Of a stretch of DNA of 64,000 bases, positions 1 to 62,627 are shown piece by piece. The stretch comes from an uncultured cyanobacterium (GTDB taxonomy: Bacteria > Cyanobacteriota > Cyanobacteriia > Thermostichales > Thermostichaceae), in contig CALFBB010000016.1 of the NCBI GenBank assembly GCA_937944885.1, positions 1 through 64,000 of the forward strand, written 5' to 3'. Under the pieces are notes generated by a model that worked only from the letters and a program-made list of their open reading frames with translations, was not told the DNA's origin and made no database searches. The translations under genes were made by a program, and so were the position numbers. Numbering within the stretch: position 1 is the stretch's first letter; the number at the start of each line of letters is the position of its first letter.

Positions 1-258
1 ATTCGTGCTCAACGCCTTTCGGCAATCAAAGGAATTTCACAAGGGATAGTCGGGATTCGTTCTCCAAAGGGCACGGGGTGCTCAACGCCTTTCGGCAATC
101 AAAGGAATTTCACATTGAAGAGGCTGTTAAAGAAGGCCAGGTCCTTTAGTGCTCAACGCCTTTCGGCAATCAAAGGAATTTCACGGGCTCAGAGGGGCTC
201 CCTCCTCTGCTTAGTGAAAATAGTGCTCAACGCCTTTCGGCAATCAAAGGAATTTCAC
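1..258 (-). CRISPR. CRISPR array of the type I (MYXAN/I-B) locus, continues beyond the left edge
   Basis: Four identical 36-base repeats lie at 5-40, 78-113, 149-184 and 223-258, separated by spacers of 37, 35 and 38 bases; bases 1-4 are the tail of a further spacer. Read on the minus strand the repeat starts GTGAAATTCC, has a GCC-GAAA-GGC hairpin with a GNRA-type tetraloop, and ends GTTGAGCAC, which would give the usual 8-base 5' handle UUGAGCAC. This supports leftward transcription, co-directional with the cas genes, with the leader at 259-510. The newest spacer would then be 185-222. The spacer at 114-148 is open in a forward frame (IEEAVKEGQVL), as expected of a piece of phage gene; that reading is inference. 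Confidence 0.97.
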
Positions 259-510
259 GCCGTGCCCTCGGAGCTCCGCCAGACAAGGCTTAGACACTCC
301 TTTTGCAAGTATATGCCAATATCATAGCCCAAGTCTATCAAAAGTGTACTCAACTTGCTAACGGTCAACTCCCCAAACTCAAGCCCAGTAAGGGATACAC
401 CTGTTGGCATGCACCTCACAGTGCCGAATATCCCGTAGGATCCCTGTCCAGTTTGCCTTTTAGCTTGGTCATTCCTGTCTAAAGTGTTCACAGTCAAGGA
501 TCCCTGTTTT
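259..510 (-). promoter_or_regulatory. putative CRISPR leader between cas2 and the array
   Basis: This 252-base stretch between the cas2 stop and the first repeat has no convincing gene and sits where the leader should be if the array is read leftward. The part nearest the array is AT-rich on the minus strand (for example CTATGATATTGGCATATAC). A weak repeat-like segment, AGTTGAGTACAC on the minus strand near 344-356, resembles the repeat end but is too diverged to call. Leader function is inferred from position only. Confidence 0.45.
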
Positions 511-804
511 TCAGAAGATTCGATAGCCACCCTGCTGTTCTGTCCAACTTTCCGCTGGGTTTATAGCAACCACTCGCTCTACGCAGCGGTTACAGATACC
601 CACAATCAACAGACCATCCTCAGGTTTAAGAATCTTCGCTAGTTGCCATCGTAGCTTCTCTCTTTCTCGTAAAGTCAACCAGCTGCGAAAGATAGAATAT
701 TGAAGTCGTTCACCGTATCCCTCCAAAAGCTTGTGGGCCTGCCGCCAGCGTTTCGGACAACGGATATCATAGCAAATAAGATAGCAAACCTTATGCTCAG
801 CCAT
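511..804 (-). CDS. cas2: CRISPR-associated endonuclease Cas2
   Basis: A 97-residue protein of normal Cas2 length. The N terminus VCYLICYDIRCPKRWRQAHK has the ferredoxin-like first strand with the conserved aspartate (YDI) and the following helix; GYGERLQYSIF is the classic second-strand motif. Cas2 dimers bridge two Cas1 dimers in the spacer-integration complex. The ATG lies 3 bases after the cas4-cas1 stop, so the two are certainly co-transcribed and form the adaptation module. It is the last cas gene before the array. Confidence 0.95.
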   Translation of the reverse strand: MAEHKVCYLICYDIRCPKRWRQAHKLLEGYGERLQYSIFRSWLTLREREKLRWQLAKILKPEDGLLIVGICNRCVERVVAINPAESWTEQQGGYRIF

Positions 805-807
805 GAC

Positions 808-2475
808 TTACCTCACCACTAACTGAGCAAAGAGCCCACCTTCACCAGTCCATTCTTTTTCCAGAAGTCGTACCTCTAACTCCAGTAATCGTCGATAGGT
901 GAGGGAATACCCTGTCACTGGATGTTTCCACTTCTCTTGCTTACGCTTCTCGTAAATAGAGATCATCTTTTTGCGCCCTTCATCACTCAGCCATACCTGC
1001 TCTCCACGTATTGTAAAATCAGCCTCTGGATCCCATTGTCCTCGGTTCACCGAAGCCATAATGGGCATATCGACCAAGGGTACCCGAAAGATTTCCATCA
1101 AATCTAAAGCTAGAGGTGGAGCCTGTGATCGGGGCTGATGATAAAAGCCTAGAGCAGGTTCTAGCCCTACTATCAAAATGGCATTCATGACATCCTTAAG
1201 TAGCAATCCATAACCAAATCCCAGCAGAGCATTGAAGCGATCTTTAGGTGGTCGCCGATTTCGACCCACAAAGCGCATTTCCTCCCTCACTGTATCTGAA
1301 AACATATGAGCTAAAGCTCCAAAGTATAGAGCGGCCAAGTTTCCCTCCAACCCCAGCAAGCTTTCACGAGAATCAGCTTTGTTCACTTGCTTGAGCACAG
1401 ATTTCATCTGTTCAATCGCTTGTTCCACCTGCGGTAGACGAGAGCAACTTGCACCGGAGCGCATCAAAAACTTGCGCTGGCTTTGTCCCCGGCAAGTTAC
1501 CAGTTGTTGAGCTAGCCTTAGGCATAGGTCCGGATCACTCAGGGCCCTGTACTGCCAGATGCGACGCTGGATACTACCCTTGCGAGGATCTAAGCTGCAC
1601 ACATAACGCCCTCCACCAGAAATAAAGTGGATCCCGATGTCAGATTCAGCACAAAAATGGATTGCTTGCGTTGAGATCTGAGAAAAGCTGTGGAGCACCA
1701 GTTGCCCTGTTTGTTGTGCAGCAATAAACTCTTCAGTTTGATCTTTATGAGTGATCTTGAGACGGGATCCACTTCGCCCTACCCGTGTTCCTGGTTCTAA
1801 AATATGCACACACTGCCGCTCATCATCCTCAGGAAACAGGCGCACCAGTTGCCATTCGCGGTCATGAGCCAGGCGTGCTTCTTCGGGCAGACACACAGGA
1901 GCCAGGGAACAACCGGCACAAAGACGCTCATTCTCGGTTACCGGAGGTCGCAGAGGAGATTGCCGTAGGAGTCTAGCTTGTTGAACAGCCTCCCGAACCG
2001 CAGCCCGCCCGGCTTCATCCAAAGGCACATGCACCAGCACATTGTCGGCATGGTAACGGATTCGCCCTTCTAAGATGGGAATGCCTAGAGCAGTTTCCAC
2101 CAAGTAGGCATAGGCCAGAATCTGGAGTCTGTCGCTCTCCCAGGCTACCGGTTGATTCTGGGGATCCCGTGCCGCACGACCCCGCTTGTGCTCGTAGGGA
2201 ATAAACTGGCCCTCACGAGTGCGCAAAGCATCCACCCGACCTCGTAAGCCCAGTTCAGCACTTTCTAGGAACAGATCTTCCCACTCCCCTTCTTCTTCGT
2301 TTTCTAACTCGACGTGTAATCGTCGTCCTGCAAATACTGCTGCGTTTTGTGTATAAAGTTCTTCGACCTCCTCCAGATAGAATAAGCGAGGGCAATAGGC
2401 TAGTGCATGTAGAGCAGATACCCGAATCAGGTCTAGATTCGCTTCAACTGTCGGATCCAATAGCATAGTCAGCAT
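808..2475 (-). CDS. cas4-cas1: Cas4-Cas1 fusion protein (MYXAN type)
   Basis: 555 residues. Residues 1-200 are a Cas4 RecB-like nuclease: Cys28 and the cluster Cys186, Cys189 and Cys195 are the expected four iron-sulfur ligands, with catalytic Asp82 (GRVDAL), the E95-H96-K97 motif and Gln118 (SDRLQILAYAYL). Residues 220-555 are Cas1: Glu377 in GLEGNLAALYF, His446 in GFYHQPRSQ and Asp458 in LALDLMEIFR fit the metal-binding triad. Cas4 trims and orients prespacers by PAM and Cas1 integrates them, so fusion couples PAM choice to integration. Fusions of this type are known in MYXAN-type and I-G systems. Separated from the effector genes by 433 bases, so probably with its own promoter. Confidence 0.95.
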   Translation of the reverse strand: MLTMLLDPTVEANLDLIRVSALHALAYCPRLFYLEEVEELYTQNAAVFAGRRLHVELENEEEGEWEDLFLESAELGLRGRVDALRTREGQFIPYEHKRGRAARDPQNQPVAWESDRLQILAYAYLVETALGIPILEGRIRYHADNVLVHVPLDEAGRAAVREAVQQARLLRQSPLRPPVTENERLCAGCSLAPVCLPEEARLAHDREWQLVRLFPEDDERQCVHILEPGTRVGRSGSRLKITHKDQTEEFIAAQQTGQLVLHSFSQISTQAIHFCAESDIGIHFISGGGRYVCSLDPRKGSIQRRIWQYRALSDPDLCLRLAQQLVTCRGQSQRKFLMRSGASCSRLPQVEQAIEQMKSVLKQVNKADSRESLLGLEGNLAALYFGALAHMFSDTVREEMRFVGRNRRPPKDRFNALLGFGYGLLLKDVMNAILIVGLEPALGFYHQPRSQAPPLALDLMEIFRVPLVDMPIMASVNRGQWDPEADFTIRGEQVWLSDEGRKKMISIYEKRKQEKWKHPVTGYSLTYRRLLELEVRLLEKEWTGEGGLFAQLVVR

Positions 2476-2908
2476 AATCTACCGATCAAATGGCGATAAG
2501 TGGAAGAATTTACCTGTAGTTATCAGGGATTAAAGAGTAAACCTTAAGGATCAGAATCCGAAAGAAAATTCAGCTGATTCTGCCTAGAAATCAGGAATGA
2601 CCTGCTCACTTTTTAAGAAATCTACTAATCAACTGGTTCAGCTCAGATTAAACACGAAATCTATTGTTCATCAGGGTAAATACCCAAACCAATTGGGATC
2701 TAGAACTAGATCAGAATAGCTTGCAACTTGTAAATCAACTTGTAAATCTTTTCTGCTGTGTTGGTGAGTGAGAGAAGTTGTATAACTAGATCAGGAGATT
2801 TGTTTTGTTAGTATGACTGCTGGGGATCTACTCAGAGACTTGACTCCCTTTCTGGAGAAAATGGAGAAATCAAGGGAGTGACGACCCACAAGTTTATTAT
2901 AGTTACTC
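2476..2908. other. 433-base non-coding gap between effector and adaptation modules
   Basis: No plausible gene on either strand. The stretch is AT-richer than its neighbours, unusual inside an otherwise overlapping operon. It holds a 12-base near-tandem repeat (ACTTGTAAATCA then ACTTGTAAATCT, around 2727-2750) and an inverted repeat at 2843-2879. It most likely carries the 3' end of the effector transcript and a separate promoter for cas4-cas1/cas2; I could not fix a single -35/-10 pair. Confidence 0.5.
2843..2879 (-). terminator. inverted repeat downstream of cas5
   Basis: ACTCCCTT at 2843-2850 pairs perfectly with AAGGGAGT at 2872-2879 around a 21-base loop, 30 bases past the cas5 stop. There is no T-run after it on the minus strand, so it may be a partial terminator, attenuator or RNA-stabilising hairpin limiting read-through from the effector genes into cas4-cas1. 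Confidence 0.4.
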
Positions 2909-3505
2909 CTAATCACTACGAATTAGTGTCCATACTGATTCTGGTAATGGTTCTGGTTGCTTTTGTAGGGAATAGCGCAACCAACGCGTGCCACTGGATC
3001 CCACGTGATCTACCCAGTAGGGTAGGGTGAGTAATCCATCTTGATCTTGAGTTAACCACTGTCCACCTTGAGGCCTATCTTTGACTCTAGTAACAGCGTT
3101 AATCAAGTCTCGACTTTCCCCTAGGCTAAGCCCACCTGAGCGTATAACACTCTCAGGATGATCAAAAGCTTCCTCTAGCCGATCCGCTAGGGATCCCTTG
3201 ACCAGCACTCGTATCTGCACATTGGTCAAGAGCTGCTGATAGTCGGGACAAGCGTTACTGGGAGCGCTAATATCCTTACTTTTGAACCGCCGGAATGTTC
3301 GAATAACAGTAGATTGTTGGGGTTGGCTCAAAAGAGCAATCGCCAGCTGGGTATCAGTGTAACGATGGCGATCCCATTCACCAATTAAGGATAGCAACAT
3401 CCCGTAAACTGTTGCCGGCGGTGGCAGAGGATAGGTCTCGGCAAACTGACGGCCTCGTGATTGCCGAAAACAAGCAACAGGTACTTCAATCTGAAGCTGA
3501 ATCAT
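2909..3505 (-). CDS. cas5: Cas5 (DevS family)
   Basis: 198 residues. The N terminus (VPVACFRQSRGRQFAETYPL then PPPATVYGMLLSLIGE) is typical of the RAMP-fold Cas5 of Tneap/Myxan-type Cascades, in which Cas5 holds the 5' handle of the crRNA and caps the Cas7 backbone. The S-G-G-L-S-L-G-E-S segment near residue 125 is the family's glycine-rich region. Its start overlaps the cas7 stop by 4 bases (ATGA), so translation is coupled. It is the last gene of the effector block. Confidence 0.92.
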   Translation of the reverse strand: MIQLQIEVPVACFRQSRGRQFAETYPLPPPATVYGMLLSLIGEWDRHRYTDTQLAIALLSQPQQSTVIRTFRRFKSKDISAPSNACPDYQQLLTNVQIRVLVKGSLADRLEEAFDHPESVIRSGGLSLGESRDLINAVTRVKDRPQGGQWLTQDQDGLLTLPYWVDHVGSSGTRWLRYSLQKQPEPLPESVWTLIRSD

Positions 3506-4431
3506 CTTTCATGTTCTCCTTTTTTCTCCTCGTTTAATTGCTCACGGATCAGCTGGATAACCTCCGTAACCGCTGCCTTAATCCCTGGCTCGACATGAGC
3601 ACCGAGAGCTTCTAGCTTCTCACCATCTTCAGTTTCGGCTGCAGCTCCAGCTACCCATAATTCAGAAGGATCAATATCACCCGCTTGTACCCGACGCACC
3701 AGATCAGGCATAGTTAAATTTCCTTCCGTATCTTCCTCAAAGCAGTAAAGAATACGTGGTGAAAAATCGTGAGTCCACCGTAGCACTAAGCTATCGGGCG
3801 CAAAATCATAGAGAAAACGAGAGTGATTACCGGCTACTTCCCCCAAAGAAATAAGACCCTCTAGAACAGCAATTACCCTATCTTGGTGATGTAGGCGGCC
3901 CGGGGTTGCGGCAAACCCATATTGATAGCGGGTGGCATGAACCTCAGTGCCGTAAAGAGAGGTGGATCCCTTTTGGCCACTCTTAGCATTAAAAGTGACA
4001 TCACCACTGTAGGGCTGGGTAGAAATTGCACGCGTGACCTCTAAAACCCCTCGACGAGCAGTGGTAGTGCCCTTTAGAGCTTGTTTACCTTTGCTCTTGC
4101 CAGCATTTTCATCAGAGGCATCTATTTTCGCTCCTTCTGCTCGCATATAGCCTAAAACATCATCATCAATGTAGCTATCAGGATCAAAGTCAGATTTCCA
4201 TTTATTATCATTGGTGATATCATCCCATTCACGATTGACCTCATAGCCATTTCCTGCTGTCTGCCAGTAGTAGCGCAAGGCCCAGCGAATGGCTTCTGCA
4301 GAAACGGTAGTATGTACCTCGTTCTTCCAGAGGATTTTCTGCAAGGTGGTGATATTGCCCTCATTCTCACCACGATTGTTGGCTGCAGTGCCATAGCTGG
4401 TCAGAATGTTGCCAAATAGATGAAAAGTCAT
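3502..4431 (-). CDS. cas7: Cas7 (DevR/Cst2 family) Cascade backbone
   Basis: 309 residues, normal length for DevR-type Cas7. Features include the N-terminal FGNILTSYGTAANNRGENEG segment, RRGVLEVTRAISTQPYSGD in the middle and GTEVHATRYQYGFAATP. Cas7 subunits polymerise along the spacer part of the crRNA and form the helical backbone that displays the seed, kinking every sixth base out of pairing. Lies 72 bases after cas8 and overlaps cas5 by 4 bases. Confidence 0.93.
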   Translation of the reverse strand: MTFHLFGNILTSYGTAANNRGENEGNITTLQKILWKNEVHTTVSAEAIRWALRYYWQTAGNGYEVNREWDDITNDNKWKSDFDPDSYIDDDVLGYMRAEGAKIDASDENAGKSKGKQALKGTTTARRGVLEVTRAISTQPYSGDVTFNAKSGQKGSTSLYGTEVHATRYQYGFAATPGRLHHQDRVIAVLEGLISLGEVAGNHSRFLYDFAPDSLVLRWTHDFSPRILYCFEEDTEGNLTMPDLVRRVQAGDIDPSELWVAGAAAETEDGEKLEALGAHVEPGIKAAVTEVIQLIREQLNEEKKGEHER

Positions 4432-4503
4432 GGTTGACTCCTTAAGTTAAGTTTGAGACGATTTTCAAACACCTGATGGAGTTCTAAGGTCAAGCCTGAT
4501 CAT

Positions 4504-6051
4504 TTATTCAAGACCGCGGATCTCGATTAGATCTTCATCTTCAGGATCAACTTCATCGAGATCCTTATCTTTTTCCTTACCTTTGTAACTAGCTAAGGCC
4601 AACAAGGCTAAATCTCGCCCCTTTCGCCATTGTTTTGGATCTGTAGCCAATCCCATTAGCTCGTTCCAATGCTCTTGTAAAGTAGGTAGTCGCCCAGCAC
4701 GAGACCAAAAATCGGTAATAAACTCTCGAAATGTCTCAGCATTTTTACAGCGACTTAAGCCGGTACGTATCCGTGTATTCTCTCGGTCAAAGTTAGTTAA
4801 TTCTCCTCGATCTCTAGTTCTTTCGGCCAAGCGTCCATAGGTAAATCTAATGGCTTCATGACAAGCTTGTATGAACCAAAGCTCTCTGGGATCTATTTCC
4901 GTCTGCATGACCATTTGATAGAGACCTCCCTTTTCGTAACTAAGTTGTTCGAATCGTTTATTGCTGTTAACCCACTCGCTAAAGTTCATGTACCAGGGAT
5001 GATCACGAGCTAGATTTTCAGCAATCATCTCACGAGCAAAACTAGTGGCTACAAAGCTACGCTCTTCTTGTTTGGATTTAGCAATCCGGTCAGGTAGCTC
5101 ATTCAAACAGACCTGATAGTTTTTACAAGCTCGGTAGCTTGCTTCAACTGTAAATAGGCCTGTGCGGGTTTTTTGCTGATTTGACCAAGATACTGTTCCC
5201 AAAGTCAAGACCTGACAGCGCGAAACCTGGAAAGTTTGGCTAGCATCAGCAATGTTTTGATAAGTTAAAAACTTCAGCCCTGCATCTCCTAGGCCTGTAG
5301 CATGAAAATCTCGGTAGCTAGCATAACGTAATTTGGGATCCATTCGATAGTTAGCATAGGTTTCCATGTTGGTAATTTCAGGGATCACCAAGGCATATTC
5401 TGCTCGTTTATCTCGTAATCGAGAGCGAAGAATGTAGTAGCAGCAAGCAACAAGGGCATAGAGTAAAACAAAAGCCAACTGAGGTGACTCCTCAAAGCTT
5501 GTATCTGAGGTAAACGCTGCATGACGTGTGGCAGCGCCAGGATATAACCATCCTGAAATATTAATAGGTTTTTTGAGTAGTTTTCCTTTATTATCACACA
5601 ACTTTTCGGCAAAGTCTTGACAAGCGTAGCTTTCTAGTGCCTTATACTCAGTAATAATTGGTGGTTTGTCCTCATCAAGGATAAAAGATTGAACTTTTTT
5701 GCCAATAGCTTTATGAGTTTTATTATGTTGTAAAAAGGTGCCTAGTATCCCTTCATGAATAATGACCTGTGAATCTTTACGCATGGATTTAGAGTCTAGG
5801 CCCCTAAGAGAGATCAGTCCATCATCTAATTGGAATGACTCTCGCAGCAGCCAGTCAAGAACTTCAAGATCATTACCTTCCCATTTAAGATGGATTTCCC
5901 GTGGTGTTAATTCCCAATTTAGGGATCCCAGACGTTGAGTCAATGAAGTTTCTTTTTCTAGTTGTTTCAAAGTCATCCAAAGTCCTGCTAACCCGGCTCG
6001 ATGTAGAAGGGTTAAACTGGGATCCCCTAAGTGAAATTTTAGTTCAGTCAT
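4504..6051 (-). CDS. cas8: Cas8 large subunit (Cas8a1/Csx13, MYXAN type)
   Basis: 515 residues. The beginning (GDPSLTLLHRAGLAGLWMTL) and the WLYPGAATRHAAF segment near residue 170 are what I recognise from the Csx13 group; cysteine pairs typical of other Cas8b proteins are not evident. Cas8 reads the PAM and recruits Cas3. The tail (KGKEKDKDLDEVDPEDEDL) is highly charged and probably disordered. The start overlaps the cas3 stop by 4 bases. Sequence divergence makes the family call less certain than for cas3 or cas7, but the position is unambiguous. Confidence 0.85.
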   Translation of the reverse strand: MTELKFHLGDPSLTLLHRAGLAGLWMTLKQLEKETSLTQRLGSLNWELTPREIHLKWEGNDLEVLDWLLRESFQLDDGLISLRGLDSKSMRKDSQVIIHEGILGTFLQHNKTHKAIGKKVQSFILDEDKPPIITEYKALESYACQDFAEKLCDNKGKLLKKPINISGWLYPGAATRHAAFTSDTSFEESPQLAFVLLYALVACCYYILRSRLRDKRAEYALVIPEITNMETYANYRMDPKLRYASYRDFHATGLGDAGLKFLTYQNIADASQTFQVSRCQVLTLGTVSWSNQQKTRTGLFTVEASYRACKNYQVCLNELPDRIAKSKQEERSFVATSFAREMIAENLARDHPWYMNFSEWVNSNKRFEQLSYEKGGLYQMVMQTEIDPRELWFIQACHEAIRFTYGRLAERTRDRGELTNFDRENTRIRTGLSRCKNAETFREFITDFWSRAGRLPTLQEHWNELMGLATDPKQWRKGRDLALLALASYKGKEKDKDLDEVDPEDEDLIEIRGLE

Positions 6052-8462
6052 GGTGTACCTACCTCTTCACTATAAGTGATGTAACCTGGCTCAGTGATAA
6101 AATAAAAACCTTTCCGCTTCCAATTCCACCATTTTGTTTCCCCACCTGGAAATCGAATAGGTATAGCCCAGGCCTGTGCTTCTTTTAGAAAGGCTTGGTT
6201 TTCAGAGAGTCTCTCTCCCTTTAATTTAGATTTTTCTAGTCGCTCTTTTGCTGCCTTATGAATTTCCTGTATATCTTCTTTAAGTAAAACAGTAATGGTG
6301 TAACTTCCCTCTCTAAGAAAATCTTGATAACTGAAATAGTTTCCTTCAATCCAAGCTGATTCAACAGATTGATAATCTTTCTGATTGAGCTGCGATGCAG
6401 CTGATGCCAGATCCTGCTGTGAAACACTTTCATGTCTCTGTAGATATTCTAAAAGTTGTTTTCCTGTTTCCAGATCAGTTTTTTTATAAGGCTGCGACTT
6501 ATTCCAGTCGTAAAAAAGAGCTAGTCGGGATCCCTCACTCTCGTCAGTCATCGTGCGATTTAAGCGACCTAGTCGTTGAATCAAAGCTGCTGCAGGAGCC
6601 ATAGCTGAGATGAGTAAGTCTGCACTCAAGTCCAGTGATATTTCACATACCTGTGTGGTTACAGCAAGAACAGGATTTCCAGACTTAAAAGCTTCAATAA
6701 CTTGCTCATGTTTTCTTACTCTATCTTTGTATCGAAAACGGCTATGGTAAATTAAAATCGACTTCTTGAACTCAGATAATTTCTTTTGTGCTAAGTGATA
6801 AATCTCAATGCAACTCGATACAGAATTGGTAACCCACAAAACCTTCTGACCTGATGCAATAGCTTCCCTTACTTTTGTCCAGATTACTTCCGACTCGATC
6901 GGATCCCCTGCTGTCTCAATTCTTTGAAGTTGATATCGTTTTAATTGCTCCAATTCTTTTGGCCCTTCAATGGGATCCCCAAGGGGCTCACCAATTTCAG
7001 CCATTACCCGTTGAATAGCTTGCAATTGCCCTGGGGTAAAGCTGGCGCTCATTAACAAGATGGGGGCACCGCGAAATACTCGCAGAAACTGTAGCAGCGC
7101 CCCAAAGAGCCGATCATCGTAGGCATGAACTTCATCAAAGACAAAAGCTGACTGCACCAGTGCTGGCCAGGCAAAGAGAGGACGACGATTGTTTTGGATA
7201 ATACCTAGAATGGAATCCACTGTACAGATGATCAACTTCTTACGCCAAGCTTGAAAAGCCTCTAATCGGAGTGGGATCCCTTCGGCATCCTCTCCTTCTT
7301 GGGTAAACAAAAGCTCTCGATCCAGATCCGCCCGTGAGTGCATCAGTAGAGACTCAATTGAGGATCCATTGGCATAGTCTAGGTAGCCCTGTGTTGCAGT
7401 ACCTGTGGTGGGATAACCGAAAAATAGACGTTTTTCTACTGCCCACCGCTGGGCCCAGGCATAGGCTCCGATGGTTTTGCCTGTACCGCAACCAGCTTTG
7501 ACTAACGTTACCCGATGAGAAGTGGCCGCAATCTGCTCTTGGAAAGGTCGCAACGAATGGTTACCCAGCCGTTGTTTAATCAACTCTTGTAGGTCTTTTT
7601 GAGTGAGTGCCAAACCTAAAGTACTGGCAAGCCAGTCTCGTAAGTTATCTTCAAGCAGCTGCACAGAGGATCCTGCTAAATCAGCGGCAATCACAGTTGC
7701 TTTTACTGCTCCCACCATCACCTGTTTTTCATAGGTAAGTGCCTGAGTAACATCTCGGAATTGCTTTTGCAGGCTCGTAAGATGATCTTCTAACTCTTCC
7801 TTTCTCCAGGCTCGATCAGTAACAACAGGTATTTCTTTGGGAAGGTCTAGTTGTTGGGAGCCCAATCTTAACACCGCCCGGAAGTCACAATGATTGGTAT
7901 AAACCCGAAGCTCGGCTCCTGCTCCGTTAGCCAGAGCTGTAATCTTTTCAGATCTTCTGTTTTCTCTATCCACCCCTGCCTTAAGGTGATGTCCTATTGC
8001 TGCCCAGACTGCTATAATCAGTTCTTCTTCCGTAAACTTTTCTAGTAGCCAATCTCTGAACTCAGGCACTTGCAGTGCCAGGATCCCACTTAGAAACTCA
8101 TGGCGAATTAGCTGTCGGGATCCATGGTCTTTCCATTTCTTAATGACTCTTTCCTTATTCTTGTCATCTAGTATAGATGAATTGATATAAACCATTTCTT
8201 GAAAATGCTGATTAGCTTTGCCCCAATCGTGTAAATAAGCTCCTAGCTTGATAATCTTTGCAAAGTAATCGCAATCTAATTTTTGTAACCCTAAGTGCTG
8301 CAGAATCTCATGTCCCAAGCTATCGACTAGCATCTCAGCTGCCAACAACACAGCCCCGATATGTCCTGTAAACTTAGCAGCACCCTTCGCCGATGCATAT
8401 TCCTGCTCCGACTGAGACTCATCCTTTTTCGGTAATGACTTTGCCAATAAGTTCTTAAACAT
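6048..8462 (-). CDS. cas3: Cas3 HD nuclease-helicase
   Basis: 804 residues from the ATG at 8462 (an upstream extension to 8504 would overlap cas6 and lacks homology-like sequence). The HD nuclease is N-terminal: His34, H78-D79 (YLHDWGK) and GHH at 157-159. The helicase follows: Walker A KAGCGTGKT at 322-330, DEVH at 442-445, the SAS motif (LMSASFT) and the QRLGRLNR arginine-finger motif. After Cascade opens an R-loop, Cas3 is recruited, nicks the displaced strand and degrades DNA 3'-5'. Single-chain HD-helicase order as in most type I systems; starts 17 bases after the cas6 stop. Confidence 0.97.
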   Translation of the reverse strand: MFKNLLAKSLPKKDESQSEQEYASAKGAAKFTGHIGAVLLAAEMLVDSLGHEILQHLGLQKLDCDYFAKIIKLGAYLHDWGKANQHFQEMVYINSSILDDKNKERVIKKWKDHGSRQLIRHEFLSGILALQVPEFRDWLLEKFTEEELIIAVWAAIGHHLKAGVDRENRRSEKITALANGAGAELRVYTNHCDFRAVLRLGSQQLDLPKEIPVVTDRAWRKEELEDHLTSLQKQFRDVTQALTYEKQVMVGAVKATVIAADLAGSSVQLLEDNLRDWLASTLGLALTQKDLQELIKQRLGNHSLRPFQEQIAATSHRVTLVKAGCGTGKTIGAYAWAQRWAVEKRLFFGYPTTGTATQGYLDYANGSSIESLLMHSRADLDRELLFTQEGEDAEGIPLRLEAFQAWRKKLIICTVDSILGIIQNNRRPLFAWPALVQSAFVFDEVHAYDDRLFGALLQFLRVFRGAPILLMSASFTPGQLQAIQRVMAEIGEPLGDPIEGPKELEQLKRYQLQRIETAGDPIESEVIWTKVREAIASGQKVLWVTNSVSSCIEIYHLAQKKLSEFKKSILIYHSRFRYKDRVRKHEQVIEAFKSGNPVLAVTTQVCEISLDLSADLLISAMAPAAALIQRLGRLNRTMTDESEGSRLALFYDWNKSQPYKKTDLETGKQLLEYLQRHESVSQQDLASAASQLNQKDYQSVESAWIEGNYFSYQDFLREGSYTITVLLKEDIQEIHKAAKERLEKSKLKGERLSENQAFLKEAQAWAIPIRFPGGETKWWNWKRKGFYFITEPGYITYSEEVGTP

Positions 8463-8479
8463 GGTGGGATCCCTGCTCA

Positions 8480-9127
8480 CTACTCCGGTAAAAAGAAACC
8501 ACAACCCATCCGTCTCCGTCCTCCTAGACCCACCTGCTGAAGTCTAATGGAGTCCTCTTCCGAGAGATGCCGCACCACGGTGCTAAAACCCACAATTGTG
8601 TGCTGCTTGATTTTGAGAGTTTTACGTAACGGAATTCCGTTTTCATCTACAAGCACCTCAACAACTCCAGGGATTCCTAGATCTGTTAATTGCTTCTGAG
8701 CTGCTTTCTGAAATCCCTCCGGCTCCAGATAGTTCTTAATTGTTACAATGCGTGCCTTTAAGGTGTGAGAACTTTTGAGCATTAAAATCTCAGGGATCCC
8801 TAAATGAATGGGATGGGATCCGATCTTGAGACTTTTTCCCGCCAGCCGTCCATACACTTGCCCTACTTGTTCTACAGGTAGCCGAATTCGCAAGTGGGAC
8901 TGAGGCGTCAATAGAATCTTGCCTTGCTTGTCTTTTATCCCGGCCACTGTCAGGATCCCAATCTCTGGATTTTGGTGTAACAGAGGCACCTGATGGGCCA
9001 TAGCCGATAGCAACCCGTACCCATGGTCGGCAGGGAGGTATGTCCCTCGTACCGGAATGCGGAGATCTACCACCAGTTGCTGTGGCTGGGCTTTTGCTGG
9101 AGAGGAGGGTGAGGTAACGAGACTCAT
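8480..9127 (-). CDS. cas6: Cas6 crRNA-processing endonuclease (MYXAN/Cmx6 type)
   Basis: 215 residues from the ATG at 9127; a GTG at 9136 would add three residues. LVVDLRIPVRGTYLPADHGYGLLSA at the start and the C-terminal glycine-rich loop GLGGRRRMGCGFFLPE are typical RAMP features of the short Cmx6-type Cas6. It cuts each repeat at the base of its hairpin to release crRNAs with an 8-base 5' handle. First gene of the operon. No clear Shine-Dalgarno sequence precedes either start, so translation may be leaderless-like or regulated by the overlapping pseudo-protospacer at 9135-9151. Confidence 0.92.
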   Translation of the reverse strand: MSLVTSPSSPAKAQPQQLVVDLRIPVRGTYLPADHGYGLLSAMAHQVPLLHQNPEIGILTVAGIKDKQGKILLTPQSHLRIRLPVEQVGQVYGRLAGKSLKIGSHPIHLGIPEILMLKSSHTLKARIVTIKNYLEPEGFQKAAQKQLTDLGIPGVVEVLVDENGIPLRKTLKIKQHTIVGFSTVVRHLSEEDSIRLQQVGLGGRRRMGCGFFLPE

Positions 9128-9134
9128 TTTGAAC

Positions 9135-9154
9135 ACATTAACTGCTTAAAGCAT
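9135..9154 (-). promoter_or_regulatory. pseudo-protospacer plus ATG PAM in the cas6 leader
   Basis: On the minus strand ATG (9154-9152) is followed by CTTTAAGCAGTTAATGT (9151-9135). The first 17 bases of the pseudo-spacer at 9301-9285 read CTTTACGCGGTCAATGT: identical at 14 positions, with mismatches only at 6, 9 and 12. Positions 6 and 12 are flipped out and not read in type I Cascades. ATG is, from memory, a known PAM of cyanobacterial type I-B effectors. The site covers the expected start of transcription and the cas6 start, so Cascade binding would block the operon. Confidence 0.65.
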
Positions 9155-9163
9155 CCGAGCATG

Positions 9164-9193
9164 AGGCTAACTGACCCTTGGTCGCCATGTCAA
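9164..9193 (-). promoter_or_regulatory. putative promoter of the cas6-cas3-cas8-cas7-cas5 operon
   Basis: On the minus strand a perfect -35 box TTGACA (9193-9188) is followed after 18 bases by TAGCCT (9169-9164), a moderate -10 box. Transcription would start near 9157, giving a 5' leader of about 20-30 bases that contains the pseudo-protospacer. Confidence 0.5.
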
Positions 9194-9200
9194 GTGTTAA

Positions 9201-9340
9201 ATGAAACGCCTGGGAAGGCAATCAGTGGTAGCGATAGGCGGAAAAGATTGGTTCCAACCTACCCGTAAAAGAGCACTTTTCCCTACATTGACCGCGTAAA
9301 GGTGCTCAACGCCTTTGGCTCTGAGCTTATCAAAGCCCTG
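9201..9340 (-). ncRNA. candidate crRNA-like regulatory RNA (pseudo-repeat, pseudo-spacer, pseudo-repeat)
   Basis: At 9302-9316 the last 15 bases of the array repeat (AAAGGCGTTGAGCAC on the minus strand) are perfectly kept, with a GCC-AAA-GGC hairpin and the full UUGAGCAC handle; upstream CTTTGAT also matches, interrupted by an insertion. At about 9201-9236 a second degenerate repeat keeps TGATTGCC and GGCGTT around a GCCT/AGGC hairpin. The 65 bases between them are a pseudo-spacer whose seed matches the cas6 leader 150 bases away. This layout is that of the CreA/CreR class of crRNA-resembling RNAs known from other type I systems. Expression is not shown by sequence. Confidence 0.65.
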
Positions 9341-40243: not shown

Positions 40244-40428
40244 GTCCCCACTCTGTGGGGATCCCTATAAGTTGGAAACTCTACTGCTCCTTCGCAAGGT
40301 TCGGTTAGCACTAACGGAGTCCCCACTCTGTGGGGATCCCTATAAATTGGAAACACCCAAATCACCGGAGTAACCGAGTACTGAATACTCAAGTCCCCAC
40401 TCTGTGGGGATCCCTATAAATTGGAAAC
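40244..40428 (+). CRISPR. short CRISPR array A, three repeats, no adjacent cas genes
   Basis: 36-base repeats at 40244-40279, 40319-40354 and 40393-40428; spacers of 39 and 38 bases. The repeat begins GTCCCCACTCTGTGGGG, a perfect 6-bp stem (CCCCAC/GTGGGG), and ends TTGGAAAC, a typical 8-base crRNA handle of type III or I-D systems. The leader-proximal repeat has one change (ATAAG for ATAAA). The first spacer is open in frame 1 (STAPSQGSVSTNG). The repeat contains the GGGATCCC palindrome. Confidence 0.95.
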
Positions 40429-44682: not shown

Positions 44683-46938
44683 CTAAGGCACTTGGGGAGG
44701 ACACCAAAAAAGATTTTGGCTGGAAATACCCAGTGAATGGAGAATATTCCTCATGATCTCTGTGCAGTACTTCCAGTGATCATGATCCGCATACATGCGA
44801 TCAGGGTTAAACTCCAGATCGTAATGAACAACATTCGGGATCCCGGCAAATTCATCAGAAGATTGTGGAGAAATAATCAAGAGCAAAAAAGGTTTGTTCT
44901 GACATTTAGCTTTTAGTTTAGCCATCAAGTCCATCACCACCTCACGCTGACACCCTCCTGTGCGAACAAACAAGAGTTTGTCGGCCTTTTCTAACACATA
45001 CTGGAAGCGTTTGGCCCTTGCACTGTAGCGAGTCCGCATCCGTTCATACACCGGTTGCATATTATGAACGGGATCATCGGTTTCTTCCACCTCATGACCA
45101 AAGGATAATCCTGTCCACTTGCTATGGTAAATACGTCTATCGCCAGGGCTGTAGTGTAAATAACGAGGATCCCACATGCCTTGAAAATCGTTTTGGATCA
45201 TATCCGCTACATCGGCCAGGTTAGTGGTGCGAGTCAAATCAAAGGGAAAGGCCGGCCCGTCATATTCCAACTTGTACAGCAGCATGCGTGCGGCACAGCG
45301 ATCCCCGAGTGGAACAATGGCCACCCGATTGATCTCCGACAACGGGCATTGATACTCCAGCCTCATCACCGAGTGGGGTGGGGCTTTAACCCGACTTTCC
45401 AGCCCCTCTTCTCCAATCATCAGGGTACGGAAAGGAGCATCCAGATTTTGCGGATCCCGATAAACCCCCGCTGGCATGGCTTTGAGGGCAGCTCGCACTT
45501 CTTTCCACATCGGGTGAATGTTGTATTCATGATCTGTGGTGTTAATGATGTAGAGACAAGGCGTGCTCTCTGCTCCTGTTCTTGACCTCTGGGATTGAAT
45601 GAGGATTAAACATCCATCATCAAAGAGGGTTTCTGCCGATTCTTGAGAGAAAAACTGTGCTGCAGGCAAGAAACTTACTTCTTTACCTGCAGGAATACTT
45701 AGAGTTGTCTTGAGCGTGCCATCTTCCCTGATCGACAGATGTAATAAAGCTACGTGATCTGGATCTTCTGCAATATAGAGTCCTGATTGCAAACCGGCTT
45801 TCTGAAGGGCTACTTGTAAAGACTGCCAGTCTGGTTTGAGGATATAGTCATAGGGAGTAGTATTGATAACTCGAAGAGAGGCTGTGATTTTGTTGATTGT
45901 GATACCAAAGCCTTGGCCATCTAGAAAAATCGGGAACTCTGCTTGGGTAAGAGTATAAGAAATTGCCGTTACGGATTGAGGCTTAAAAAGAGAAAGATCA
46001 ATAGATTCAAACATCAACTGGTGACCCTTGGAATTAGGGTGAGCTGCATCGAAAGAAAGACCTTCTTTCCAGCCTCCTTGACCATCCTCTAGAACCGGCA
46101 ACCAGTTTAAGACAGGGTATCCCCAACTCAACATACGATGATGAGTTTCCTGAAGCAAAACGCGGTGTTCAGAAGTGTAGTCTCTGTGGGGATAGACTCC
46201 ACCTAAAATTGGTAGGGCACCGATCTGTTCTGTCATTAAAATTAACTGTTTAAGTCCATTTTCAAAGCGCTTTTGAATCAGCACACGATCTTGGGGTGAG
46301 CAAAAGGCCAATCCTTCATTGCCCAAAGATAAAGCAACAATAACAATATCCGGCTTCTCAGGGGTTACAACTTGAGAAAAACGATTCAGGGTTCTTTGAA
46401 CATTAGCCCCTAGCTCAGAGAGATTGATCAGTTGATACCCATAACGCTCTTGCAAGGCTTGTTCCAAATGCCAGGCCCAACCCCGTAACAGCCAGGCACT
46501 ACAGCCCAGGGCAACAGAGCTTCCCAGAACTACAATCTTTTTATCTGAATTTCCAGGCTTGGGATTAGAAGTGGGTTGCCCATAATAGCCGTAAGGATAG
46601 CTAGGGATCCAACCAAAAGATCCGTCCTCAACAATGATCGGCTCAGGAAAAGGGTCAGGCTCCAGCGGGATCCAGCGATTGCTTCCATTGGATTCCCAGG
46701 TTATTTGGCCATCTGCTTGCATACGCAGATATTGATATTCAATGTAGGTGGATCCTGTTGCCGAATTTTCATACTTGAGATCCAATTCCACCCACCAAAG
46801 GGGATAAGTGTAAGGATCCGTCTTTAGCTGTACGCAATACCTAGGATCCCATTGTCCCATTTTGGGATGGGATCCCACCAAGGCAATAGATTCACCTGGC
46901 TGAGTAGTAGCCTGAACCTGAAACCGATATGTGCCCAT
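44683..46938 (-). CDS. four-part protein: CBM20, SGNH hydrolase, duplicated domain, DUF1796 cysteine peptidase-like
   Basis: 751 residues. Residues 1-95 resemble a starch-binding CBM20 (VGSHPKMGQWDP, IEYQYLRMQADGQITWES). Residues 133-320 are an SGNH/GDSL hydrolase: VVLGSSVALG with Ser141, GNEG with Asn207, and DAAHPN with Asp297 and His300. Two related segments follow, 355-425 and 462-530 (VINTTPYDYILKPDW and IINTTDHEYNIHPMW). Residues 536-751 are DUF1796, a papain-like family: Cys548 in PLGDRCAARM and PFDLTRT, then SFGHEVEE. No signal peptide. A role in glycan deacylation or modification is conceivable but inferred. Confidence 0.75.
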   Translation of the reverse strand: MGTYRFQVQATTQPGESIALVGSHPKMGQWDPRYCVQLKTDPYTYPLWWVELDLKYENSATGSTYIEYQYLRMQADGQITWESNGSNRWIPLEPDPFPEPIIVEDGSFGWIPSYPYGYYGQPTSNPKPGNSDKKIVVLGSSVALGCSAWLLRGWAWHLEQALQERYGYQLINLSELGANVQRTLNRFSQVVTPEKPDIVIVALSLGNEGLAFCSPQDRVLIQKRFENGLKQLILMTEQIGALPILGGVYPHRDYTSEHRVLLQETHHRMLSWGYPVLNWLPVLEDGQGGWKEGLSFDAAHPNSKGHQLMFESIDLSLFKPQSVTAISYTLTQAEFPIFLDGQGFGITINKITASLRVINTTPYDYILKPDWQSLQVALQKAGLQSGLYIAEDPDHVALLHLSIREDGTLKTTLSIPAGKEVSFLPAAQFFSQESAETLFDDGCLILIQSQRSRTGAESTPCLYIINTTDHEYNIHPMWKEVRAALKAMPAGVYRDPQNLDAPFRTLMIGEEGLESRVKAPPHSVMRLEYQCPLSEINRVAIVPLGDRCAARMLLYKLEYDGPAFPFDLTRTTNLADVADMIQNDFQGMWDPRYLHYSPGDRRIYHSKWTGLSFGHEVEETDDPVHNMQPVYERMRTRYSARAKRFQYVLEKADKLLFVRTGGCQREVVMDLMAKLKAKCQNKPFLLLIISPQSSDEFAGIPNVVHYDLEFNPDRMYADHDHWKYCTEIMRNILHSLGISSQNLFWCPPQVP

Positions 46939-60487: not shown

Positions 60488-60562
60488 TTTTAAGCTGTTT
60501 TATTATTTTAAGCTGTTTTATTCTTTTATTCTATTAACAGAATGATTCTAACAGAATGATTC
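60488..60562 (+). repeat. two adjacent tandem duplications upstream of the CARF gene
   Basis: TTTTAAGCTGTTTTATT recurs with an 18-base period (60488-60504 and 60506-60522), and TAACAGAATGATTC recurs with a 14-base period (60535-60548 and 60549-60562). The stretch is very AT-rich and ends 14 bases before the ATG, whose ribosome-binding site AGGAG lies 4 bases upstream. It probably contains the promoter. Confidence 0.8.
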
Positions 60563-60576
60563 ACTTTAGGAGTTGA

Positions 60577-61671
60577 ATGGTGCAACCCGTTTTGATGGTG
60601 TCCTCGTGTGGCACCAGTACTTTGACCTTTAACGTTAATGAGGATTTGCGCAAGCTATTGAATACCACTGCTAATGCCAAAGAGACTGACTTGAATCCTC
60701 AAGAGCGGCAGCAGGTTCAGGCTCATATCGAGGGACGGCGGCAAATGATCTTGGCTGCTCCTCCCCATCAGGTAGTCAAGCTCAGTGCAGAGCTAAACGG
60801 GATCCTGACCTATTTTGATCATCAGTTGCCCGGCCCCCCCTCGGAGCATATTCTGCTTGCTACTGATACTTTCCAGGGGCAGGCTACAGCTCAGATCGTT
60901 TTGAGTTGGCTACAGCAGCAGGGAGTAGCAGGGCGGGTAGAGCGGATCACGGATATGAGTGTCAGGACCTTGGATGAGTTTCGCCTCAGCATGGGAGCTT
61001 TGGTGGAGTGGGGGGAGCAGACCTTAAGCAGCTACCAAAAGCAAGGTTTTCGGGTGGTGTTTAACCTGACTGGGGGATTCAAGAGCACCAATGGTTTTTT
61101 GCAGGCGATGGGGATGTTTTATGCGGATGAATGTGTCTATATCTTTCAGGAATCCTCAGAGTTGTTGCGGATCCCTCGCCTGCCTCTGAAGCTGGATCCC
61201 GATGGCGTGGTGGGGGAACATATGCAGACTTTTCGGCGGTTGGCTCAGGGGTACAATCTGGCGGTGACGGAGTGTGCCGGGATTCCGGAGACTTTGTTAT
61301 ATGAGGTGGAGGGGCAGGTAACCCTGTCGGAGTGGGGGCGACTGGTATGGGAACGGTGCCACGAGATCTATTACAAGAAACGGGTTTGGGATCCCGTGAG
61401 TGCCAAGGTGCGGTTGAATCCAGAGTTTATCAGAGAGGCAGAGAATCTTGGGCCGGACAGACTGGCCCTGGTGAATCGACAGTTGGATAGGTTGGGACGC
61501 TGCCTGGAGTCTGATCAGACTTACAACCCCCGCTCGCTGCATTTTCATAAGGTGGAGGGCTACGAAGATTGGTATGAGTGCTATGCCTGGAGCGATCTGG
61601 ATGCAAGGCGGATCTATGGTCGCTTTCGGGATGGGGTGTTTGAGGTGGAGCGGTTGGGGCAGCATTTGTGA
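60577..61671 (+). CDS. CARF-domain CRISPR accessory protein with RelE-like C terminus
   Basis: 364 residues. The N-terminal CARF domain (about 1-205) belongs to the APE2256/Csm6-like group: VLMVSSCGTSTLTF with the G-T-S loop at 12-14, and RVVFNLTGGFKSTNGFLQAM at 159-178 plus FYADECVYIFQESSELLRIP, which shape the cyclic-oligoadenylate pocket. A helical linker (TLSEWGRLVWERCHEI) follows. Residues 275-364 look like a RelE/ParE fold: RSLHFHKVEG, ECYAWSDLDARRIYGRF, DGVFEVERLGQHL. RelE toxins cut mRNA in the ribosome, and CARF-RelE fusions have been catalogued. No Cas10 is in the window. Confidence 0.8.
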   Translation: MVQPVLMVSSCGTSTLTFNVNEDLRKLLNTTANAKETDLNPQERQQVQAHIEGRRQMILAAPPHQVVKLSAELNGILTYFDHQLPGPPSEHILLATDTFQGQATAQIVLSWLQQQGVAGRVERITDMSVRTLDEFRLSMGALVEWGEQTLSSYQKQGFRVVFNLTGGFKSTNGFLQAMGMFYADECVYIFQESSELLRIPRLPLKLDPDGVVGEHMQTFRRLAQGYNLAVTECAGIPETLLYEVEGQVTLSEWGRLVWERCHEIYYKKRVWDPVSAKVRLNPEFIREAENLGPDRLALVNRQLDRLGRCLESDQTYNPRSLHFHKVEGYEDWYECYAWSDLDARRIYGRFRDGVFEVERLGQHL

Positions 61672-62060: not shown

Positions 62061-62102
62061 TAACTTGCAACCGTTCCAGAAAACAGCTGAAACAACCTAT
62101 CC

Positions 62103-62257
62103 CCGTTGATCCACTCGTTCGCGTAGCGGTGCGTAGCACTCTGTCTTACTACATAAGGGTTTCAGACCCCTCCTCAAGCTCCCATTTTTACCAAGTTGGC
62201 CGCCCCCTCACCAATGGCCCTTGCCTCCCTTGCCCTGACTGGGTTTTAATGGAGGCT
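62103..62257 (+). promoter_or_regulatory. CRISPR leader B (second repeat family)
   Basis: 155 bases nearly identical to leader A, including the doubled GCGTAGC and the final GGTTTTAATGGAGGCT just before the first repeat. Confidence 0.8.
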
Positions 62258-62366
62258 GTCCCCACTCTGTGGGGATCCCTATAAATTGGAAACCAGTGCT
62301 TCTCCGGTAGCTTCTCGCACGATTTGGCCGGTCCCCACTCTGTGGGGATTCTTATAAATTGGAAAC
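62258..62366 (+). CRISPR. short CRISPR array B, two repeats plus decayed distal copies
   Basis: Repeat 62258-62293 is identical to the array A repeat; after a 37-base spacer the copy at 62331-62366 has two changes (ATTCTT for ATCCCT). At 62501-62536 a third copy matches 26 of 36 bases (GGGATCCCTATAA intact), after a 134-base gap that may hide another lost repeat near 62431-62466 (CATAACTCGAAAG). The single good spacer is open on the minus strand (GQIVREATGEAL). Direction right, from leader B; decay rises away from the leader. Confidence 0.92.
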
Positions 62367-62554
62367 TTGTCAACATCTTCAAGTTGCAAAGCCCTGGTCA
62401 GAAAGCGAACAGAGCGAGGGCTGACTCCCTCGTCAAAATAAATCAAAAGATTCATAACTCGAAAGTTTATTCTAAGAATCTACCAGCCTCAAAGGGAGTT
62501 ATCTCTACTTTGCAGGGATCCCTATAACTCGGCAAAGGACAGCCTCTTGACAAT

Positions 62555-62627
<73 letters not shown>

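What the first reader, a model, noticed from the sequence alone, without database searches (positions are those of the whole stretch)
60577..61671. CARF-RelE-like effector beside an orphan CRISPR array
The N-terminal half has the APE2256/Csm6-type CARF motifs for cyclic oligoadenylate; the last 90 residues look like RelE. A ribosome-dependent mRNA cleaver switched on by the type III second messenger would shut down translation during infection. CARF-RelE architecture has been catalogued, but I know of no detailed study of a cyanobacterial one.
Basis: partly seen in the sequence, partly recalled or inferred. Interest (0 to 1): 0.7.

Follow-up and report, generated by a model that had tools for sequence, protein, structure and literature searches.

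The report
Orphan cyanobacterial CARF-RelE CRISPR effector gene
The gene is a real CRISPR accessory protein, a sensor for the infection alarm molecule cyclic oligoadenylate fused to a RelE-like toxin domain; it belongs to a catalogued family whose Synechocystis member has already been purified and shown to destroy that alarm molecule, so it is a largely ordinary new member stranded away from its usual CRISPR neighbours.

Summary
ORF 60577-61671 (364 aa) is a CARF7/APE2256 protein and matches PADLOC's CARF7--CARF_RelE model end to end (5.7e-114). No RelE sequence profile hits the C-terminus confidently. An AlphaFold model of that domain, folded alone, matches RelE, YafQ and YoeB toxins at the top of the PDB; the full model matches Cami1 best. 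The adjacent array is a leader, two intact repeats and one decayed repeat.

The claimed gap in knowledge is wrong. The Synechocystis Sll7062/SyCsm6 orthologue (43% identical, full length) was characterised in 2022: it cleaves cA4 and cA6 but showed no RNase activity in vitro. Cami1 (CARF-RelE, A. vinosum) is known to cut mRNA on the ribosome. The window protein keeps the three ring-nuclease residues (S14, E72, K169).

Relatives usually sit in or beside type III loci. Here the gene is apart from a III-B locus on another contig, whose cas10 carries a frameshift at GGDD and whose csx1 carries a stop codon; four congeners have both intact. The gene and array form a roughly 2.2-kb species-specific insert, partly shared with a MAG in a sister genus.

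Most likely: a cA4-gated, self-limiting translation inhibitor. Verdict: new member of a known kind.

The parts
60577..61671 (+). CARF-RelE gene, 364 aa
   Evidence: full-length orthologue of Synechocystis Sll7062, 43% identity
60577..61206 (+). CARF7 domain (about residues 1-210), with S14, E72 and K169 at the positions of the SyCsm6 residues S12, E70, K167
   Evidence: Foldseek hits to ring nucleases Sis0811 and Sso1393
61207..61380 (+). middle segment (about residues 211-268) joining CARF and effector domain
   Evidence: model secondary structure; conserved PETLL and LSEWG motifs
61381..61668 (+). RelE/YafQ-like C-terminal domain (about residues 269-364); D340, D342, R345 invariant in the subfamily, H363 near the C-terminus
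62102..62257 (+). CRISPR leader, shared with the arrays at window 40.1 kb, contig C10 and contig C46 and, more diverged, with the SM2_3_2 MAG
62258..62293 (+). CRISPR repeat 1 (GTCCCCACTCTGTGGGGATCCCTATAAATTGGAAAC)
   Evidence: Rfam RF01371
62294..62330 (+). only regular spacer (37 nt)
   Evidence: its 24-nt core has no exact match in viral contigs
62331..62366 (+). CRISPR repeat 2 (94% identical)
62501..62536 (+). decayed repeat (72%), 134 bp after repeat 2
62554..62627 (-). tRNA-Pro(CGG); synteny with two congeners resumes at its 3' end

Best explanation
The gene encodes a type III CRISPR ancillary effector of the cyanobacterial CARF-RelE subfamily (SyCsm6/Sll7062 group). Proposed working: (1) a Cas10 that has found its target RNA makes cyclic oligoadenylate, most likely cA4; (2) a dimer of the protein binds it through the CARF domains; (3) this frees the C-terminal RelE/YafQ-like domains, which cut mRNA on the ribosome and stop translation, as Cami1 does; (4) the same CARF site slowly cleaves the ring, so the shutdown is self-limiting and also quenches a co-encoded Csx1. 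Shown here: the architecture, the conserved ring-nuclease residues, the RelE-type fold of the model, and the type III linkage of relatives. Shown elsewhere for an orthologue: dimer by gel filtration, cA4 and cA6 cleavage. Inferred: steps 1 to 3 in this organism. In this genome the gene has moved away from, or was acquired apart from, a III-B locus whose cas10 and csx1 look damaged, so it may depend on a partly failing partner.
For: PADLOC CARF7--CARF_RelE 5.7e-114 end to end, with the Synechocystis and Gloeomargaritales relatives on the same model. Foldseek of the full model: Cami1 first (7e-15, 373 columns), then Sis0811 ring nuclease. C-terminal domain alone: RelE (M. jannaschii, E. coli), YafQ and YoeB. 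SyCsm6 ring-nuclease biochemistry with the K167A loss of function (PMC9676260); S, E and K at the equivalent positions are invariant in 12 relatives. Cami1 is a cA4-activated ribosomal A-site mRNase (PMC11229360) and is stated to have ring-nuclease activity (PMC12409355). Linkage: CARF-RelE lies next to or inside type III loci in Gloeomargaritales, G023, G084, G082, G254 and Synechocystis. Purifying selection between the window and SM2_3_2 copies, omega 0.20 over the whole gene.
Against: SyCsm6 did not degrade total RNA with or without cA4 or cA6. The window copy and SM2_3_2 have Y333 and R349 where the other ten relatives have His. Constraint on the C-terminal domain is weaker (omega 0.44 against 0.14 for CARF; small counts). 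Own cas10 is frameshifted at GGDD and csx1 has an in-frame TGA. The model rests on 4 sequences (mean pLDDT 79 full length, 74 for the domain).
Confidence: 0.62

Rival explanations
1. Mainly a ring nuclease: the protein's job is to destroy cOA and switch off Csx1, and the RelE-like domain of this lineage is catalytically weak or serves as a structural or ribosome-docking part.
For: SyCsm6 showed only ring-nuclease activity; the three ring-nuclease residues are invariant; two family histidines of the C-terminal domain are lost in this lineage; weaker constraint on that domain.
Against: A ring nuclease needs no 95-residue RelE domain, yet the subfamily keeps D340, D342, R345 invariant and a His near the C-terminus in all twelve. 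RelE-type toxins need ribosomes, which the SyCsm6 assay lacked. Gloeomargaritales loci also carry a Csx3-like gene next to it, a candidate separate ring nuclease.
Confidence: 0.25
2. A stranded remnant: the gene and mini-array are a leftover or recent acquisition with no working Cas10 in this organism, so the effector is silent.
For: 2.2-kb segment absent from the five congeners; cas10 frameshift and csx1 stop in the own III-B locus; two intact repeats only.
Against: The ORF is intact and shows purifying selection. The gene-leader-array order is kept in the SM2_3_2 MAG. The G9 frameshift may be an assembly error; only the csx1 stop is a substitution.
Confidence: 0.13

Closest known systems
SyCsm6 (Sll7062), Synechocystis sp. 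PCC 6803, type III-D CRISPR2 locus (PMC9676260)
   Same: Full-length homology (43% identity), same C-terminal domain type, same S/E/K ring-nuclease residues, same PADLOC model
   Different: Sll7062 is the last gene of an intact III-D operon; the window gene stands alone beside a mini-array and has Tyr and Arg in place of the His of THEC and of GHF
Cami1, Allochromatium vinosum (PDB 8phb, 8phj)
   Same: CARF7 plus RelE-type domain; best fold match over 373 columns
   Different: About 20% identity; C-terminal sequence not alignable; scores best on a different PADLOC model (PDLC01939 CARF_RelE_like); sits at the head of a cmr operon
Sis0811 / Sso1393 (Crn1 ring nucleases)
   Same: CARF fold and ring-nuclease residues
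   Different: No RelE-like domain
RelE / YafQ / YoeB type II toxins
   Same: Predicted fold and strand order of the C-terminal domain
   Different: Fused to CARF rather than paired with an antitoxin; the E. coli RelE active-site lysines are not evident

Membership tests
CARF7 CARF-RelE type III effector (PADLOC PDLC01934; SyCsm6 group) | End-to-end match to the family profile | tested here: met
   5.7e-114, residues 5-364
CARF7 CARF-RelE type III effector (PADLOC PDLC01934; SyCsm6 group) | Ring-nuclease/ligand residues equivalent to SyCsm6 S12, E70, K167 | tested here: met
   S14, E72, K169, invariant in 12 relatives
CARF7 CARF-RelE type III effector (PADLOC PDLC01934; SyCsm6 group) | C-terminal RelE-type fold | tested here: met
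   Predicted structure only; Foldseek top hits RelE, YafQ, YoeB; sequence profiles silent or weak
CARF7 CARF-RelE type III effector (PADLOC PDLC01934; SyCsm6 group) | Encoded in or beside a type III locus (typical of the family, not obligatory) | tested here: not met
   Own III-B locus is on another contig, C49; most relatives examined do meet it
CARF7 CARF-RelE type III effector (PADLOC PDLC01934; SyCsm6 group) | Binds or cleaves cA4/cA6 | not testable with these tools
   Needs protein; shown for the orthologue
Cami1 | Same protein family by sequence over both domains | tested here: not met
   phmmer to 8phb covers residues 91-261 only; Cami1 prefers PDLC01939
Cami1 | cA4-activated, ribosome-dependent mRNA cleavage with stalk recruitment | not testable with these tools
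   Known for Cami1; not assayed for this subfamily
RelE/YafQ type II toxin | Match to a RelE/YafQ sequence family | tested here: inconclusive
   No toxin hit for the window protein; one of 12 relatives hits PF15738 YafQ at 0.13; hhalign against YafQ 19.0, above nine control profiles (eight column shuffles and one reversed, maximum 16.7) but weak
RelE/YafQ type II toxin | Paired antitoxin gene next door | tested here: not met
   Neighbours are cdsA upstream and a leader-array downstream, from reading the ORF list only; no dedicated antitoxin search was run
Active CRISPR array | Leader plus several near-identical repeats with regular spacers | tested here: inconclusive
   Leader and two intact repeats with one 37-nt spacer, third repeat decayed

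The most novel reading that the evidence does not exclude
The gene plus leader-array pair is a mobile, self-contained accessory module that works in trans with a distant type III complex, and this lineage's RelE-like domain has a remodelled active site (Y333, R349), giving a CARF-RelE effector with a different target or cleavage chemistry from SyCsm6 and Cami1.
Probability: 0.12. Interest if true: 0.5.

Novelty: new member of a known kind. Interest (0 to 1): 0.27.

Why it matters
CARF-RelE is a common type III effector, but in the papers found here ribosome-dependent cutting is shown only for Cami1; the cyanobacterial subfamily has a different C-terminal sequence and a published ring-nuclease activity without RNase activity. 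This gene is one more member with which to settle whether the subfamily is a toxin, an off-switch or both. The locus also shows an effector living apart from its type III complex.

Tried and rejected
Profile search of the PDB with the C-terminal alignment: only chance hits. hhalign with shallow alignments against YafQ: better than controls but not convincing. Search for relatives in viral contigs: none confirmed. Exact search of the spacer core and of the repeat in viral contigs: none. An array between CARF-RelE and csx1 in Gloeomargaritales, which would have explained the window array as an ancestral neighbour: none found. A second type III system (III-D) in the own genome: the RAMP search found only the C49 locus. 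The Cas10-like hit on C33 is a GGDEF response regulator. A sigma-70 promoter upstream of the gene: none found, and the scan's hit rate is at chance.

Full report
Observation. The ORF at 60577-61671 is intact, 364 codons, ATG start. Residues 68-202 match Pfam Cas_APE2256 at 2.3e-31 and NCBIfam TIGR02619 at 9.2e-11. PADLOC's CARF7--CARF_RelE model covers residues 5-364 at 5.7e-114, so the architecture was already catalogued.

RelE domain. Sequence methods do not prove it: no Pfam toxin hit for the window protein; one of twelve relatives reaches YafQ_toxin at E 0.13; an hmmsearch of the PDB with the C-terminal family profile gives chance hits only; hhalign against a YafQ alignment scores 19.0 against at most 16.7 for nine control profiles. 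Structure is clearer. A model of the whole protein from four sequences (mean pLDDT 78.8, pTM 0.62) finds Cami1 first (E 7e-15 over 373 columns), then the Sis0811 ring nuclease, and further down E. coli RelE. A model of residues 270-364 alone (pLDDT 74.2, pTM 0.67) finds M. jannaschii RelE (4.1e-4), E. coli RelE (9e-4), YafQ and YoeB; the first 24 hits are all toxins of the RelE/ParE superfamily. The order helix, helix and four strands fits. TM-scores are moderate (mostly 0.5-0.65) and alignment depth was low, so this is good but predicted evidence.

Family. tblastn against plasmids gives Synechocystis pSYSA at 43% identity over the full length; the gene there is the last of a III-D operon followed by a divergent csx1/csx2. 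That protein, Sll7062/SyCsm6, was purified by Ding et al. 2022 (PMC9676260): dimer by gel filtration, no degradation of total RNA with or without cA4 or cA6, cleavage of cA4 to A2>P and also of cA6, lost in K167A; the authors suggest the RelE domain may act on translated mRNA. The window residues equivalent to S12, E70 and K167 are S14, E72 and K169, invariant in the twelve-member alignment. [quoted passage not shown] PDB 8phj is its complex with the 70S ribosome.

Subfamilies. Among 386 genomes of the phylum, 24 have a match. Some relatives match over the whole length (group A, with a C-terminus like THECDAWSDxDAKRIFGHFE...GLH); others match over the CARF part only and have a different C-terminus (HFRVTQG.RVSC). 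PADLOC puts both on one model and Cami1 on another. In group A, D340, D342 and R345 are invariant and a His lies within the last few residues of all twelve. The window copy and SM2_3_2 alone have Tyr at 333 and Arg at 349, where the ten others have His. By analogy with RelE-superfamily RNases (from general knowledge, not tested), R345 and the terminal His are the best active-site candidates.

Neighbourhood. In Gloeomargaritales and G023 the gene lies between a Csx3-like gene and csx1-cas10-cmr3-cmr4-cmr5-cmr6, the same type of III-B locus as in this genome; in G084 it is inside a cmr operon; in G082 and G254 it is next to csx1 and cas10. In this genome it is alone. The type III-B locus is on C49. 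There cas10 is open up to YGGG and continues in another frame with GGGDDVLAY: a run of nine G gives the +1 shift. csx1 has an in-frame TGA and no evident start. Four congeners (G001, G003, G004, G005) have csx1, cas10 and cmr genes as full ORFs with GGDD intact. Whether the lesions are real cannot be settled from an assembly; the poly-G shift may be an error.

The insert. Congeners keep cdsA, and most keep pdhA next to it, but similarity to the window stops at about 60351, the end of cdsA, in all five; in G005 and G002 similarity resumes at 62553, the 3' end of tRNA-Pro, at a different locus. None of the five has the CARF-RelE gene. So roughly 60.36-62.55 kb is specific to this species within the genus sample. 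The nearest relative, an 88%-identical gene in the SM2_3_2 MAG of a sister genus, also has a related leader and repeat (GTCCCCACTCGCTGGGGATCCCTATAAATTGGAAAC) downstream, running off the contig. The gene-leader-array arrangement is therefore older than this species or moves as a unit.

The array. Repeats at 62258-62293 and 62331-62366, a decayed third at 62501-62536; Rfam CRISPR-DR58. The same leader and repeat occur at window 40.1-40.4 kb, on C10 and on C46, those on C10 and C46 not beside cas genes as far as probed. It is a set of dispersed mini-arrays, not a single orphan. The spacer core had no exact viral match.

Selection. Between the window and SM2_3_2 genes omega is 0.20 overall, 0.14 for CARF, 0.29 for the middle and 0.44 for the C-terminal domain (Nei-Gojobori). 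The last rests on 7 synonymous and 11 nonsynonymous differences and should not be over-read.

Conclusion. A cA4-gated, self-limiting RelE-type effector is the best reading (0.62). The main alternative is a ring nuclease with a weakened RelE domain (0.25), then a stranded remnant (0.13). The finding is sound but ordinary in kind, and its novelty claim fails because the Synechocystis orthologue and Cami1 are already studied.

Noticed in passing
G000 contig C49 about 41277 (L023 about 11278): A run of nine G at the codons for the Cas10 GGDD motif puts cas10 out of frame; the four congeners checked have no such run. Could be an assembly error, a real lesion, or a slippage-prone switch.
   Followed up: partly
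L023:7430-8656: csx1-like CARF-HEPN gene upstream of cas10 carries an in-frame TGA and lacks an evident start; full-length ORFs in four congeners.
   Followed up: partly
window 40244-40428; L041 about 8839-9231; L042 about 1908-2083: Three further mini-arrays with the same repeat and leader, no cas genes seen beside those on C10 and C46.
   Followed up: partly
window 62554-62627 and C10 about 45252-45327: Two of the mini-arrays end next to a tRNA gene; G005 has a leader-like fragment beside what reads as a tRNA as well.
   Followed up: no
window 1-9136: A type I CRISPR system with a Cas4-Cas1 fusion, Cas5, Cas7, Cas8-like, Cas3 and Cas6-like genes and its own, different repeat array at 1-259; gene names from reading the sequences, except Cas1 (Pfam).
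   Followed up: partly
window 60536-60562: A 13-bp near-tandem duplication (AACAGAATGATTC) just upstream of the gene.
   Followed up: no
L066:1486-2424 and L065: A second, 312-aa copy in G082 lacks the RelE-like end; G210 has a short ORF matching residues 196-318 only.
   Followed up: no
L031, L051-L063: A second cyanobacterial CARF7 subfamily with a different C-terminal sequence (HFRVTQG..RVSC), whose fold was not tested.
   Followed up: no
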